Shown piece after piece: positions 1,927 to 17,667 of a stretch of DNA of 26,182 bases. Both the position numbers and the translations under genes were made by a program. Position 1 is the stretch's first letter, and each line of letters begins with the position of its first letter. The notes beneath the pieces were generated by a model. The model was not told the origin of the DNA, ran no database searches, and worked only from the letters and a program-made list of their open reading frames with translations. Source of the DNA: a virus; IMG/VR virus record IMGVR_UViG_3300020394_001438, positions 1 to 26,182 of that record, one strand, 5' to 3'.

Positions 1927-1952
1927 CATTAATCGACGAGAGGAGATGCCCA

Positions 1953-2273
1953 ATGAGCGGCGATCTGAAGGCCCTACGGGACCAGTTGGAGCGGCTGCAT
2001 GAGCGCGTGGATGTTCTGTCGGCGCAGTCTGACGCAGCGAACTATTTCGCGATCGGGATTTGCGCGGCGCTGAACGACGTGCTGCAGGTGGCCAGTGAGC
2101 ACTGCCCGCAGCTGATTCGGGATCTGGAGCCGCGCTATCGAGAAGGCCGACTGCTGTATAAGCAGGCCGATCGCGGCGCTGATGTTGGTACCGCGCCCGA
2201 GTCCTATCAGCCGATGAGCATGCTGTACGCGCTGTTGGACAGCCAGGGGGCATTCCGTAGAGCAGGTCTGTAG
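1953..2273 (+). CDS. Rightward gene of unknown function inside the leftward early region, 106 aa
   Basis: The ATG at 1953 follows an AGGAGA ribosome site at 1941-1946. The protein starts MSGDLKALRDQLERLHERVDVL, a heptad-like amphipathic helix that suggests coiled-coil oligomerisation, followed by a mixed hydrophobic helix (NYFAIGICAALNDVLQVA). There are no membrane segments and no recognised domain. Codon use is GC-rich at third positions, as in the neighbours, which argues that it is real. Its TAG (2271-2273) directly abuts the stop of the convergent Ner-like gene (2274-2276), with no intervening base and no terminator. Leftward transcripts from the early promoter would therefore be antisense to it. 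Possibly a lysogeny-phase or moron gene. Confidence 0.72.
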   Translation: MSGDLKALRDQLERLHERVDVLSAQSDAANYFAIGICAALNDVLQVASEHCPQLIRDLEPRYREGRLLYKQADRGADVGTAPESYQPMSMLYALLDSQGAFRRAGL

Positions 2274-2566: not shown

Positions 2567-2582
2567 GAGGCTTTTATGTCCC
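2544..2582. promoter_or_regulatory. Repressor operator array
   Basis: GGGACAT (2544-2550) and ATGTCCC (2553-2559) form a 7-bp-arm inverted repeat around AA. A further ATGTC lies at 2560-2564, and an exact ATGTCCC at 2576-2582 overlaps the start codon of the repressor gene. Sites therefore cover the early promoter spacer, its -35 and the repressor translation start, which suggests both repression of the early promoter and autoregulation. The binding protein is inferred to be the XRE repressor encoded next door. Confidence 0.65.
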
Positions 2583-2965
2583 TTTCGATAGGTGAGAGGC
2601 TGCGGCAGGCACGGGGCAGCATCGGGGTTGCGGGCTTTGCCGCCGCCCTTGGGGTCAACCGAAAGACCGTTACACGCTGGGAGAGTGGCGATTCGATCCC
2701 CGATGGGGCGTCATTGCTGGCGCTGAAGGAGCAGTTTGACGTTGACCCATCCTGGCTATTGACTGGCAAAGGGGCCGGCCTGGAGCTTTCAGAGGACGAA
2801 CGTGAGCTGCTCGCCCTCTATCGCGCCGCGCCTTTGGCAGGCAAGGCTGCCGCTGTCGGCGCGCTGAAGGGAGTGGTGGCCAGCGGAAATAACGTGGTCG
2901 TAACGGGCGACGGGAATCGTGTCGCGGGTGGCAATGTCCACCGTGGCGGCAAGAAGCGAGAATAG
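2576..2965 (+). CDS. XRE-family phage repressor (Mu c / lambda CI role), 129 aa
   Basis: The ATG at 2576 has AAGAGG five bases upstream. Residues about 4-60 form an XRE HTH: IGERLRQARGSIGVAGFAAA, LGVNRKTVTRWESG and a DPSWLLTGKG end typical of phage repressors. A short helical segment follows (LSEDERELLALYRAAPLAGK). The tail carries an unusual Asn/Gly/Val stretch (GNNVVVTGDGNRVAGGNV), like short beta-strand turns. It lacks the S24 autocleavage peptidase of LexA-type repressors, so induction must work differently. It is divergent from the Ner-like gene, and its start codon lies inside the operator array. A strong palindrome follows the gene. It should maintain lysogeny by shutting the leftward early promoter. 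Confidence 0.87.
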   Translation: MSLSIGERLRQARGSIGVAGFAAALGVNRKTVTRWESGDSIPDGASLLALKEQFDVDPSWLLTGKGAGLELSEDERELLALYRAAPLAGKAAAVGALKGVVASGNNVVVTGDGNRVAGGNVHRGGKKRE

Positions 2966-2976
2966 GAATTAATTAC

Positions 2977-3000
2977 AAAGGCGTCAGCGCTGACGCCTTT
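2977..3000 (+). terminator. Perfect palindrome after the repressor gene, probable terminator
   Basis: Two 12-base arms, AAAGGCGTCAGC and GCTGACGCCTTT, form a perfect 24-bp palindrome 12 bp after the repressor stop. Its ends are A-rich and T-rich, so it could terminate in either direction, although the T run is only three bases. Such a perfect dyad could also bind a protein dimer. Confidence 0.55.
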
Positions 3001-3024
3001 GGGAGTGCATTGGGTGACACTGGC

Positions 3025-3222
3025 ATGGACGGTCGGGGGACCATGACAATTATCGGAAACGACAATCGGGTCGTCCTTCGTGATCTCTATGAAGTGCGCC
3101 TATCCGGTGAAGCAGCCCGGTCCGTGGCTGAACGAATCTTAGCGTTGTTGGATCGGGGCGCCGTTACACTGGACGATGACGGCACTGCCATTTCCATTTA
3201 CGTCAACATCAATCGGGGCTGA
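3025..3222 (+). CDS. Small protein sharing the repressor's Asn/Gly/Val motif, about 65 aa
   Basis: The frame is open from a TTG at 3010. I take the ATG at 3025 (a weak GGGTGA seven bases upstream); an ATG at 3043 follows GGGGA very closely and is also possible. The protein starts MDGRGTMTIIGNDNRVVLRD, then has a helix (SGEAARSVAERILALLDRG) and a strand-rich end (AISIYVNINRG). The TIIGNDNRVV stretch resembles the VVVTGDGNRVAG tail of the repressor just upstream, which suggests a functional link such as co-assembly or modulation. It has no membrane segment and no recognised family. It sits 60 bp after the repressor, past the palindrome. Confidence 0.55.
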   Translation: MDGRGTMTIIGNDNRVVLRDLYEVRLSGEAARSVAERILALLDRGAVTLDDDGTAISIYVNINRG

Positions 3223-3244
3223 TGAAGCAACAGAGGGAGGGGCA

Positions 3245-3478
3245 ATGGCGCTGACCACCTGCAAGGAGTGCGCTAGTCGAGTATCGAACAAGGCGGCGTC
3301 CTGCCCGACCTGCGGGGCTCCCTTAAGGGGGGCGGCGATATCGGGTGAAGGGGCGGGCTTTCTCTTGATTGTGAGCGGCATGCTCACCGCTATGGCCGCT
3401 CAGCCACCGCTGTCTACCTGGGGTGGTGTAGCCATCGCTGCTGGTGTGGTTGTTTTTCTCATGGGGCGGATGCGATGA
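3245..3478 (+). CDS. Zinc-ribbon, two-helix membrane protein, 77 aa
   Basis: The ATG at 3245 follows a strong GAGGGAGGGG site. The N terminus carries a zinc ribbon, with Cys6, Cys9, Cys20 and Cys23 in TCKECASRVSNKAASCPTCG. Two hydrophobic helices follow (about 36-51, EGAGFLLIVSGMLTAM, and 57-74, WGGVAIAAGVVVFLMG), ending in Arg. Zinc-ribbon plus transmembrane proteins of this size are common on mobile elements and in bacterial genomes, and their roles are mostly unknown. It lies between the repressor and the lysis cassette, where temperate phages often carry accessory genes expressed in the lysogen. An inner-membrane location is inferred, with possible roles in host physiology or superinfection exclusion. 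Confidence 0.72.
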   Translation: MALTTCKECASRVSNKAASCPTCGAPLRGAAISGEGAGFLLIVSGMLTAMAAQPPLSTWGGVAIAAGVVVFLMGRMR

Positions 3479-3488
3479 CGGGGATGAA

Positions 3489-3818
3489 ATGCGAATAATA
3501 TCTGCTGCGCTGCTGACGGCGGTGTTGTGTGCCGGTTGCGCAACAGCCACGTCTGGCAGAGAGTTCCGTGTCGAGAACGTGGGGCAGTTGCGGCCAGGGC
3601 AGACCACAATCAGTCAGGCACGCGCACTGCTCGGTGAGCCTTATCAGGTAGTGGAGGCCAGCAGCGGCAATCGGCTGTACATCTGGCAGCATGTCGAATC
3701 CCGCGCTCGTGGGACCTCAGTGAACACCGATCTACAACAACTGGTTGTCCTATTTGACTCGGAGGCCCGGATGGTCAGAATCCAGCAGCGCATCAATGTG
3801 CCTGGTGCGCCCCAGTAG
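3489..3818 (+). CDS. BamE/SmpA-like lipoprotein, 109 aa
   Basis: The ATG at 3489 lies just after the preceding stop, with a GGGGA site upstream. The N terminus (MRIISAALLTAVLCAGCATA) is a lipoprotein signal with lipidated Cys17; the -3 residue is Cys instead of the usual Leu. The mature part (VGQLRPGQTTISQARALLGE, then YIWQHVESRARG and VVLFDSEARMVRIQQRI) follows the BamE/SmpA/OmlA pattern: a G-x-T helix start, an LGxP turn and strands ending in a basic tail. Host BamE supports outer-membrane protein assembly. A phage-borne copy could alter the lysogen surface or block superinfection; that role is inference. Ser/Ala after the Cys suggests outer-membrane sorting. Confidence 0.72.
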   Translation: MRIISAALLTAVLCAGCATATSGREFRVENVGQLRPGQTTISQARALLGEPYQVVEASSGNRLYIWQHVESRARGTSVNTDLQQLVVLFDSEARMVRIQQRINVPGAPQ

Positions 3819-3902
3819 CGGTATCGTCTGAAACCGGCGCCGGGCTGGAGCCGGCGAGAACACCAAATTAATCACCATTAACCACTGAAAACGGGGGATC
3901 CG

Positions 3903-4097
3903 ATGAGATCACTGATGCTATTGCTAGCCATTGCCGTGCTGGGTGGATGCACCACCGCAGGGCCATATATTACGAACATCTCCAGCGACGGAAACGGCGG
4001 CCTTAACGTCGAAAAGTGCGCCGCCCACTTCAACGGCTGGACGGGCACCATATCCAACACGGACTGCACCTCGCAGCATATTCAGCTCAGGCGCTAG
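3903..4097 (+). CDS. Very small lipoprotein, 64 aa
   Basis: The ATG at 3903 is preceded by GGGGGATCCG, with the G-run as ribosome site. The signal (MRSLMLLLAIAVLGGCTTAG) has a clear LGGC lipobox with lipidated Cys16 and Thr at +2, predicting the outer membrane. The mature 49 residues include GPYITNISSDGNGGLNVEKC and a second Cys pair, Cys39 and Cys55, that could form a disulphide. I do not recognise a named family. It is the last gene before the putative late-promoter element at 4111. Placement next to another lipoprotein and a membrane protein suggests a cassette of lysogenic-conversion or exclusion genes. Confidence 0.68.
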   Translation: MRSLMLLLAIAVLGGCTTAGPYITNISSDGNGGLNVEKCAAHFNGWTGTISNTDCTSQHIQLRR

Positions 4098-4114
4098 CTC
4101 TGCAGCGCGGTTTT
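4091..4114 (+). terminator. Weak hairpin plus T run ahead of the lysis module
   Basis: GCGCT (4091-4095) pairs with AGCGC (4104-4108) and is followed by GGTTTT. The T run is also the first arm of the 4111 element. It could end the accessory transcript, but the stem is only 5 bp. Confidence 0.3.
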
Positions 4115-4131
4115 GCCCGCGTTCAAAAGAC
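4111..4131 (+). promoter_or_regulatory. Putative late-promoter activator site, copy 1 (lysis module)
   Basis: TTTTGCCCGCGTTCAAAAGA followed by C is identical to copy 3 at 17647 and differs by one base from copy 2 at 11914. The core is a dyad, TTTTG-N8-CAAAA. It lies 71 bp before the holin start. Mu C protein binds a similar short dyad upstream of Plys. The element and its three placements are seen directly; the activator role is inference. Confidence 0.6.
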
Positions 4132-4140
4132 GTTTCTCCC

Positions 4141-4172
4141 TACGCCCCCGATCATGGGGGCGTAGTCGTTTT
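4141..4172 (+). terminator. Strong hairpin in the lysis leader, terminator or attenuator
   Basis: TACGCCCCC (4141-4149) pairs perfectly with GGGGGCGTA (4156-4164) across a 6-base loop, followed by GTCGTTTT. It has the look of an intrinsic terminator but lies between the putative late-promoter element and the holin gene, so it may insulate or attenuate lysis gene expression. Confidence 0.5.
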
Positions 4173-11913: not shown

Positions 11914-11934
11914 TTTTGCCCCCGTTCAAAAGAC
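11914..11934 (+). promoter_or_regulatory. Putative late-promoter activator site, copy 2 (head module)
   Basis: TTTTGCCCCCGTTCAAAAGA followed by C has one C-for-G change relative to copies 1 and 3, located in the N8 spacer; the TTTTG and CAAAA arms are intact. It lies 51 bp before the start codon of the protease/scaffold gene, the position of PI in Mu. Confidence 0.6.
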
Positions 11935-17623: not shown

Positions 17624-17650
17624 CGGCGGCTGCGGCCGCCGCTTAGTTTT
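17624..17650 (+). terminator. Hairpin plus T run ahead of the tail module
   Basis: CGGCGGC (17624-17630) pairs with GCCGCCG (17635-17641) across TGCG; CTTAGTTTT follows. The T run is also the first arm of the 17647 element. It looks like an intrinsic terminator placed immediately before a new promoter signal. Confidence 0.5.
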
Positions 17651-17667
17651 GCCCGCGTTCAAAAGAC
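17647..17667 (+). promoter_or_regulatory. Putative late-promoter activator site, copy 3 (tail module)
   Basis: TTTTGCCCGCGTTCAAAAGA followed by C is identical to copy 1 over the whole element. It lies 30 bp before the tape measure ATG. This position corresponds to a tail-module promoter such as Mu PP. CATCAT at 17686-17691 is a possible but weak -10. Confidence 0.6.

What the first reader, a model, noticed from the sequence alone, without database searches (positions are those of the whole stretch)
3025..4097. Accessory cassette of membrane-directed small proteins between repressor and lysis genes
A zinc-ribbon membrane protein, a BamE-like lipoprotein and a tiny lipoprotein follow one another. 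None is needed for a virion. A phage copy resembling BamE, an outer-membrane assembly factor, could alter surface proteins in the lysogen, block superinfection or affect host fitness. The combination does not match a defence system I know.
Basis: inference. Interest (0 to 1): 0.6.

Follow-up and report, generated by a model that had tools for sequence, protein, structure and literature searches.

The report
Repressor-linked envelope gene operon in phage
Right after its immunity repressor this temperate virus carries a short set of membrane and outer-membrane proteins probably made while it lies dormant, and the repressor and its next-door gene share a short peptide that turns out to be a recurring, apparently undescribed pairing of phage repressors with membrane proteins.

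Summary
The trio is real: a zinc-ribbon two-TM protein (3245-3478), a BamE-fold protein with a signal peptide (3489-3818) and a tiny lipoprotein (3903-4097), in a B3-like transposable phage between the repressor and the lysis genes. It and the repressor's C-tail carry a short 'GxxNRVAGRDF'-like peptide. An IMG/VR scan for this peptide returned 88 stretches. Every distinct hit lay at a repressor's C-terminus or near the N-terminus of the gene just downstream, which usually encodes a tail-anchored or zinc-ribbon membrane protein. Nearly all examined cases carried both copies. Identical residues share codons at only 36%, so the peptide itself is conserved. Some relatives fuse tag, zinc ribbon and TM in one protein; the window looks like a split version. 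BamE-fold genes follow repressors in B3, phiSHP3, an E. coli lambdoid phage and others. In related phage Fc02, RNA-seq shows that the lipoprotein gene in this slot is transcribed with the repressor in the lysogen. Best reading: a lysogeny operon acting at the envelope, most likely for superinfection exclusion, with the tag coupling the repressor to its membrane partner. Function is inferred; the tag pairing is the new observation.

The parts
2576..2965 (+). HTH immunity repressor; C-tail 'VVVTGDGNRVAGGNVHRGGKKRE' carries the tag
   Evidence: Pfam HTH_3 1.4e-7; N-terminal part 59% identical to repressors of B3-like Pseudomonas phages H72/UMP151/Fc02; tail HMM from other phages: top window hit, E 1e-4
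2976..3001 (.). perfect palindrome AAAGGCGTCAGC/GCTGACGCCTTT between repressor and tag gene; possible weak attenuator or terminator
   Evidence: sequence; self-match on opposite strand
3043..3222 (+). 59-aa tag protein 'MTIIGNDNRVVLRDLYE...'; N-terminal tag matches those of tag-zinc-ribbon-TM proteins of other phages (alternative in-frame start 3025)
   Evidence: head HMM built from other phages: top of 630 window segments, E 0.0014, next unrelated hit 2.4; local scores 45-47 with L123/L061/L066 heads
3245..3478 (+). zinc-ribbon protein with two hydrophobic segments
   Evidence: DZR/Zn_ribbon sub-threshold hits; fused tag-ZnR-TM counterparts in L061, L066, L095, L109, L123
3489..3818 (+). BamE-fold exported protein with probable lipobox (phrog_3135)
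3903..4097 (+). tiny lipoprotein, family of unknown function
   Evidence: lipobox; homologues in L018, MT836861 and small plasmids
4111..4130 (+). 20-bp repeat TTTTGCCCGCGTTCAAAAGA, putative late-promoter element before the lysis operon (other copies 11914, 17647)
   Evidence: 0 expected by chance; same place in L006, L007, L066
4140..4165 (+). terminator-like hairpin closing the repressor transcript
   Evidence: 11-bp stem plus T-rich tail; similar hairpin sequence in L006 and L007

Best explanation
The region is the accessory half of the lysogeny (repressor) operon of a B3-like transposable phage. While the prophage is dormant it is probably co-transcribed with the repressor (shown for the same slot in Fc02, inferred here). 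It yields a cytoplasmic repressor with a C-terminal tag, a small tag-bearing protein, an inner-membrane zinc-ribbon protein, and two exported envelope proteins, one of BamE fold. The exported proteins most likely protect the lysogen at the envelope (superinfection exclusion at adsorption or DNA entry; inferred). The shared tag most likely lets the repressor and its neighbour, directly or through the zinc-ribbon membrane protein, associate, so that repressor state and a membrane-located partner are coupled (inferred from recurrent tag pairing). Shown: gene content, fold, slot conservation, tag pairing at both gene ends. Not shown: expression in this phage, any exclusion phenotype, any tag-tag contact.
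For: Same slot (repressor, then membrane/tagged protein, then exported protein, then holin) in B3, L006/L007, L033, L034/L035; phiSHP3 and Bhz63 have the BamE-like gene directly after the HTH gene. Unrelated lipoproteins fill the slot in Ps59, H72, UMP151 and Fc02. Unrelated phages also carry a BamE-like lipoprotein after a repressor: E. coli lambdoid PhiR26_1 directly after cI, where lambda has rexAB, and YMC11/07/P54; others place it by the integrase or in the tail module. Fc02 RNA-seq: repc plus the next accessory gene e4 transcribed in the lysogen (PMC9936078); the gene there encodes a lipoprotein. Tag pairing: a DNA-pattern scan blind to the partner gave 88 stretches, every distinct motif terminal, partner motif found by script in 11/13 tails and 29/31 heads; reading the four misses by eye, three do have a tagged partner or tagged repressor (L049, L078, L123) and one (L082) does not. 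Identical residues use the same codon in 36% of cases versus 35% between loci. Window tags found by HMMs built without the window.
Against: No expression or phenotype data for this phage. In L006, L007 and L033 the repressor lacks the tag although the membrane protein carries a GNN-like stretch, and phiSHP3 has neither a tagged neighbour nor a lipobox, so neither part is obligatory. Within the main tag type, repressor and partner are not better matched than random pairings (p 0.32). The window's own tail and head are only weakly alike (p about 0.05). The palindrome 2976-3001 could uncouple the downstream genes from the repressor transcript.
Confidence: 0.5

Rival explanations
1. The tag is primarily a lysis-lysogeny control element: a beta-type tag that makes the short repressor (which lacks a CI-type C-terminal domain) oligomerise, with the neighbouring tagged membrane protein acting as a membrane-tethered antirepressor that sequesters repressor on a membrane signal. 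The lipoproteins are separate cargo.
For: Middle domain of tagged membrane proteins (phrog_5825) matches antirepressor families (phrog_245 2e-6) and Flk (2e-17), with weak ORF6C hits for related partners and a weak ORF6C structural match. Tags sit on repressor C-tail and partner N-terminus in dozens of phages.
Against: The window's tag protein has no such domain; no induction data; AlphaFold2 leaves the tag at low confidence in a monomer.
Confidence: 0.3
2. The tag pair works like amyloid signalling motifs: a repressor-side tag seeds a membrane effector that depolarises the cell on infection (abortive infection, a functional analogue of lambda RexAB).
For: Adjacent genes sharing a short G/N-rich motif at opposite ends, the partner carrying a TM, as described for bacterial amyloid signalling sequences in neighbouring Bell and NLR proteins (PMC8086366). 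rex-like position. Burkholderia P2-like phages KS5, AP3 and Carl1 carry a different motif, again in both proteins.
Against: No NLR or Bell domain; no BASS model was available to test membership; partners match no PADLOC model.
Confidence: 0.12
3. Host-fitness cargo: the BamE-fold protein and tiny lipoprotein tune outer-membrane protein assembly or surface properties of the lysogen without a role against phages.
For: BamE fold; the tiny lipoprotein family also occurs on small non-phage plasmids.
Against: Profile alignment lacks BamE's N-terminal stretch; the protein in the slot is freely swapped between phages, more typical of exclusion or moron genes.
Confidence: 0.2
4. Late lysis helpers: the exported proteins belong to the lysis operon and act at cell lysis.
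For: They lie next to holin, endolysin and spanin genes.
Against: Late-promoter-like repeat and terminator-like hairpin lie between them and the holin; an Rz-like spanin gene lies further downstream; in Fc02 the slot gene is transcribed in the lysogen and is distinct from the late clusters.
Confidence: 0.05

Closest known systems
Pseudomonas phage B3 ORF18-ORF22 and relatives (Beetrevirus accessory slot; Fc02 repc-e4)
   Same: Repressor, tagged/membrane gene, BamE-like or other lipoprotein, then holin; lysogen transcription shown for Fc02 repc-e4
   Different: B3 and Ps59 carry a tagged two-TM protein without a zinc ribbon; the window has the tag and the ZnR-TM part as two ORFs and adds a tiny lipoprotein. 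Fc02's repressor lacks the tag
Tag-zinc-ribbon-TM proteins downstream of tagged repressors in L061, L066, L095, L109, L123 (IMG/VR)
   Same: Same order; same tag type at the N-terminus, zinc ribbon, TM segments
   Different: Fused in one gene there, two ORFs in the window; the zinc-ribbon match itself is weak
phrog_5825 / phrog_6521 membrane proteins of transposable and P2-like phages
   Same: Tagged membrane protein directly after the repressor
   Different: Carry a Flk/ORF6C-like helical domain and a TM; the window's tag protein has neither
lambda rexAB and phage lipoprotein exclusion factors (T5 Llp, phi80/N15 Cor; from own knowledge)
   Same: Genes behind cI made in the lysogen (rexAB) or small envelope proteins that block superinfection
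   Different: No sequence relation was tested; no phenotype known here
E. coli BamE
   Same: Fold and exported form
   Different: Lacks the N-terminal ERVVYRPDIN stretch in alignment; phage-borne

Membership tests
BamE (BAM complex subunit) | BamE domain fold | tested here: met
   Pfam at cut-off, 6 of 7 homologues match; first 17 Foldseek PDB hits are E. coli BamE
BamE (BAM complex subunit) | N-terminal stretch present in solved BamE (ERVVYRPDIN in E. coli) | tested here: not met
   gap at that stretch in the profile-BamE alignment and in BLASTP
BamE (BAM complex subunit) | assembly into the BAM complex | not testable with these tools
   needs pull-down
Outer-membrane lipoprotein | signal peptide with lipobox | tested here: inconclusive
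   3903 ORF canonical (LGGC); 3489 ORF has Cys at -3 (LCAGC), Cys17 invariant in the aligned lipoprotein homologues; the phiSHP3 homologue lacks it
Beetrevirus lysogeny-operon accessory slot | located between repressor and holin in a B3-like phage | tested here: met
Beetrevirus lysogeny-operon accessory slot | co-transcription with repressor in lysogen | not testable with these tools
   shown for Fc02 only (PMC9936078)
Tagged repressor / tagged neighbour pair | tag at repressor C-terminus and at N-terminus of the next gene | tested here: met
   HMMs built without the window find both, E 1e-4 and 1.4e-3
Tagged repressor / tagged neighbour pair | tag carried by a membrane protein | tested here: inconclusive
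   tag ORF has no TM; the adjacent ORF has the zinc ribbon and TM segments, as in fused relatives
Bacterial amyloid signalling (BASS) pairs | match to a BASS1-10 motif and NLR/Bell partner | not tested
   no BASS models available; no NLR or Bell domain seen in family searches
Known anti-phage defence systems | match to a PADLOC model | tested here: not met
   no hit at E up to 1 for window or relatives

The most novel reading that the evidence does not exclude
Many transposable and P2-like temperate phages pair their immunity repressor with an adjacent membrane protein through a shared short terminal peptide tag. The tag physically couples the repressor to the membrane and forms an undescribed lysogeny-control or infection-sensing device, of which the window holds a split zinc-ribbon version.
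Probability: 0.45. Interest if true: 0.82.

Novelty: new variant of a known kind. Interest (0 to 1): 0.6.

Why it matters
A slot behind the repressor that is expressed in lysogens and filled with swappable envelope proteins is where phages keep tools that decide which other phages can enter. The shared tag offers a concrete, cheap test of whether phage repressors talk directly to membrane proteins. The E. coli version is in 515 of 5,426 complete genomes, so it can be tested in laboratory strains.

Tried and rejected
DNA-duplication origin of the tag: rejected, codon identity at shared residues equals that between unrelated loci. Pair-specific matching within the main tag type: tested, not found (p 0.32). 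The p 0.0003 with Burkholderia phages included rests on three related phages, so roughly one independent switch. Host of this phage not identified: the record is a 26-kb viral contig. Close relatives of B3 ORF20 in IMG/VR: none. PADLOC: none. PDB sequence profile for BamE alone is weak (E 0.16); the fold search settled it. Fold search for the tagged membrane protein gave only weak ORF6C-like matches. BLASTP of the window zinc-ribbon protein with a fused relative is weak (E 0.26); that link rests on gene order, tag and zinc-ribbon pattern. The paper on B3-like exclusion genes (10.1128/JVI.00953-20) is not held. Paper searches found no description of the tag, but the library is incomplete.

Full report
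What is there. The window is a B3-like (Mu-like, transposable) phage: regulators on the - strand, repressor on the + strand, holin 4202, transglycosylase 4525, Rz-like spanin 5175, then packaging and structural genes. Between repressor and holin lie four small genes: 3043-3222, 3245-3478, 3489-3818 and 3903-4097. BamE-like: Pfam BamE 6e-5 at its cut-off, phrog_3135 2.5e-16. The model (pLDDT 82) finds E. coli BamE chains first. Purifying selection is clear, dN/dS about 0.12. The profile alignment lacks BamE's N-terminal ERVVYRPDIN stretch, so it shares the BamE fold but fails that BamE feature. The tiny lipoprotein has no named family, yet relatives exist in a viral contig (66%), a faecal scaffold (46%) and on small plasmids, one of only 1.9 kb.

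The slot. In B3, L006/L007, L033 and L034/L035 the same slot holds a membrane gene and a BamE-like gene; phiSHP3 and Bhz63 have the BamE-like gene directly after the HTH gene. In Ps59, H72, UMP151 and Fc02 an unrelated lipoprotein (phrog_10370) takes that place. Outside this phage group a BamE-like lipoprotein stands directly after cI in E. coli PhiR26_1, behind a repressor gene in YMC11/07/P54, next to the integrase in Lodos and before the tape measure in PP9W2: typical positions of lysogen-expressed accessory genes.

Expression. In Fc02, whose repressor is 58.5% identical to the window's over its N-terminal 61%, RNA-seq of the uninduced lysogen shows transcription of repc and the accessory gene behind it (e4), separate from three late clusters that start with holin-endolysin genes (PMC9936078). 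The gene behind the repressor there encodes a lipoprotein. In the window a 20-bp repeat occurs exactly three times, before the lysis, head and tape-measure genes (4111, 11914, 17647; zero expected). It recurs at the lysis position in L006, L007 and L066. A terminator-like hairpin follows at 4140-4165. So the four genes most likely end the repressor transcript and are not part of the late lysis unit. This is inference for this phage.

The shared tag. The repressor ends in VVVTGDGNRVAGGNVHRGGKKRE and the next gene begins MTIIGNDNRVVLRDLYE. In B3 the corresponding peptides are ISVTGDGNRTAGRDFHERKE and NIEVTGSNNIVAGRDFIENH. A DNA pattern for this peptide (GxxNR, then a variable residue, then AGRDF) scanned over IMG/VR returned 88 stretches. 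After removing duplicates, every motif lay either within about 25 residues of a repressor's C-terminus or near the N-terminus of the gene just downstream, none mid-protein. The script found the partner motif for 11 of 13 tails and 29 of 31 heads. Reading the four misses by eye, L049, L078 and L123 do have a tagged partner or tagged repressor; L082 does not. The partners are mostly about 210-aa proteins with one C-terminal TM and a helical domain resembling Flk and antirepressors (phrog_5825). A minority carry tag, zinc ribbon and TM in one protein: L061, L066, L095, L109, L123. The window's tag ORF resembles the tags of this minority best (scores 45-47 against 29-31 for B3 and L051) and is followed by a separate zinc-ribbon TM ORF, hence the reading that the window holds a split form. 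HMMs built without the window find exactly the tag ORF (E 0.0014) and the repressor tail (E 1e-4) among 630 window segments.

Is the tag pairing selected? At residues identical between tail and head the codon is the same in 36% of cases, as between unrelated loci (35%), so the copies are not recent DNA duplicates. Burkholderia phages KS5, AP3 and Carl1 have a different motif in both repressor tail and neighbour head, suggesting that both ends change together. Against specificity: within the main type real pairs are no more alike than shuffled ones (p 0.32). L006, L007 and L033 repressors lack the tag. The E. coli version is in 515 of 5,426 complete genomes, annotated as HTH protein or regulator plus membrane or hypothetical protein.

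Mechanism. Most likely the genes form the accessory part of a lysogeny operon that acts at the envelope, probably to exclude other phages, with the tag coupling repressor and a membrane-located partner. The alternatives (membrane antirepressor, amyloid-type signalling, host-fitness cargo, lysis helper) are ranked in the rivals; the antirepressor and amyloid rivals concern the tag and can be true together with an envelope role of the lipoproteins. No phenotype is known.

Novelty. An exclusion or conversion operon behind a repressor is a known kind; B3-like phages already have described exclusion genes elsewhere in the control region (gene 10, olg1). The recurring tag shared by repressor and neighbour was not found in the papers searched (an incomplete library) and its main partner family is listed as unknown in PHROGs.

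Noticed in passing
window 4111-4130, 11914-11933, 17647-17666: Three copies of TTTTGCCCGCGTTCAAAAGA precede the lysis, head-protease and tape-measure genes; probably late-promoter or activator sites (Mu Plys/PI/PP analogues).
   Followed up: partly
window 2976-3001: Perfect 26-bp palindrome in the gap between repressor and tag gene, where most relatives have only a gap of about 12 bp; attenuator, terminator or operator.
   Followed up: no
window 1951-2273: Conserved + strand ORF upstream of the ner-like gene, also in L006/L007, at the position of Fc02 olg1/olg2 (olg1 is an exclusion gene).
   Followed up: no
L010 3942-4444: The BamE-like gene of the B3 record is broken near its 5' end (split as ORF21/ORF22), while L034 has an intact one.
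   Followed up: no
L130 1664-1942: A 1.9-kb ColRNAI-type E. coli plasmid carries a relative of the tiny lipoprotein as one of very few recognisable genes.
   Followed up: partly
L126 3575-4300: The tagged membrane gene of E. coli phage 520873 is frameshifted in that record and left unannotated; intact copies exist in E. coli genomes.
   Followed up: no
L127, L128, L023: Burkholderia P2-like phages KS5, AP3 and Carl1 show a second, different motif shared by repressor tail (QNFEGAxIGQxVTGDV) and neighbour head (NQKFDGxIGQVAGGDV).
   Followed up: partly
L019, L034, L020: Unrelated lipoproteins in this slot share the C-terminal segment LDELNxMQLPYxEYQRRYREITGQ, suggesting domain swapping in front of a fixed tail.
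   Followed up: no
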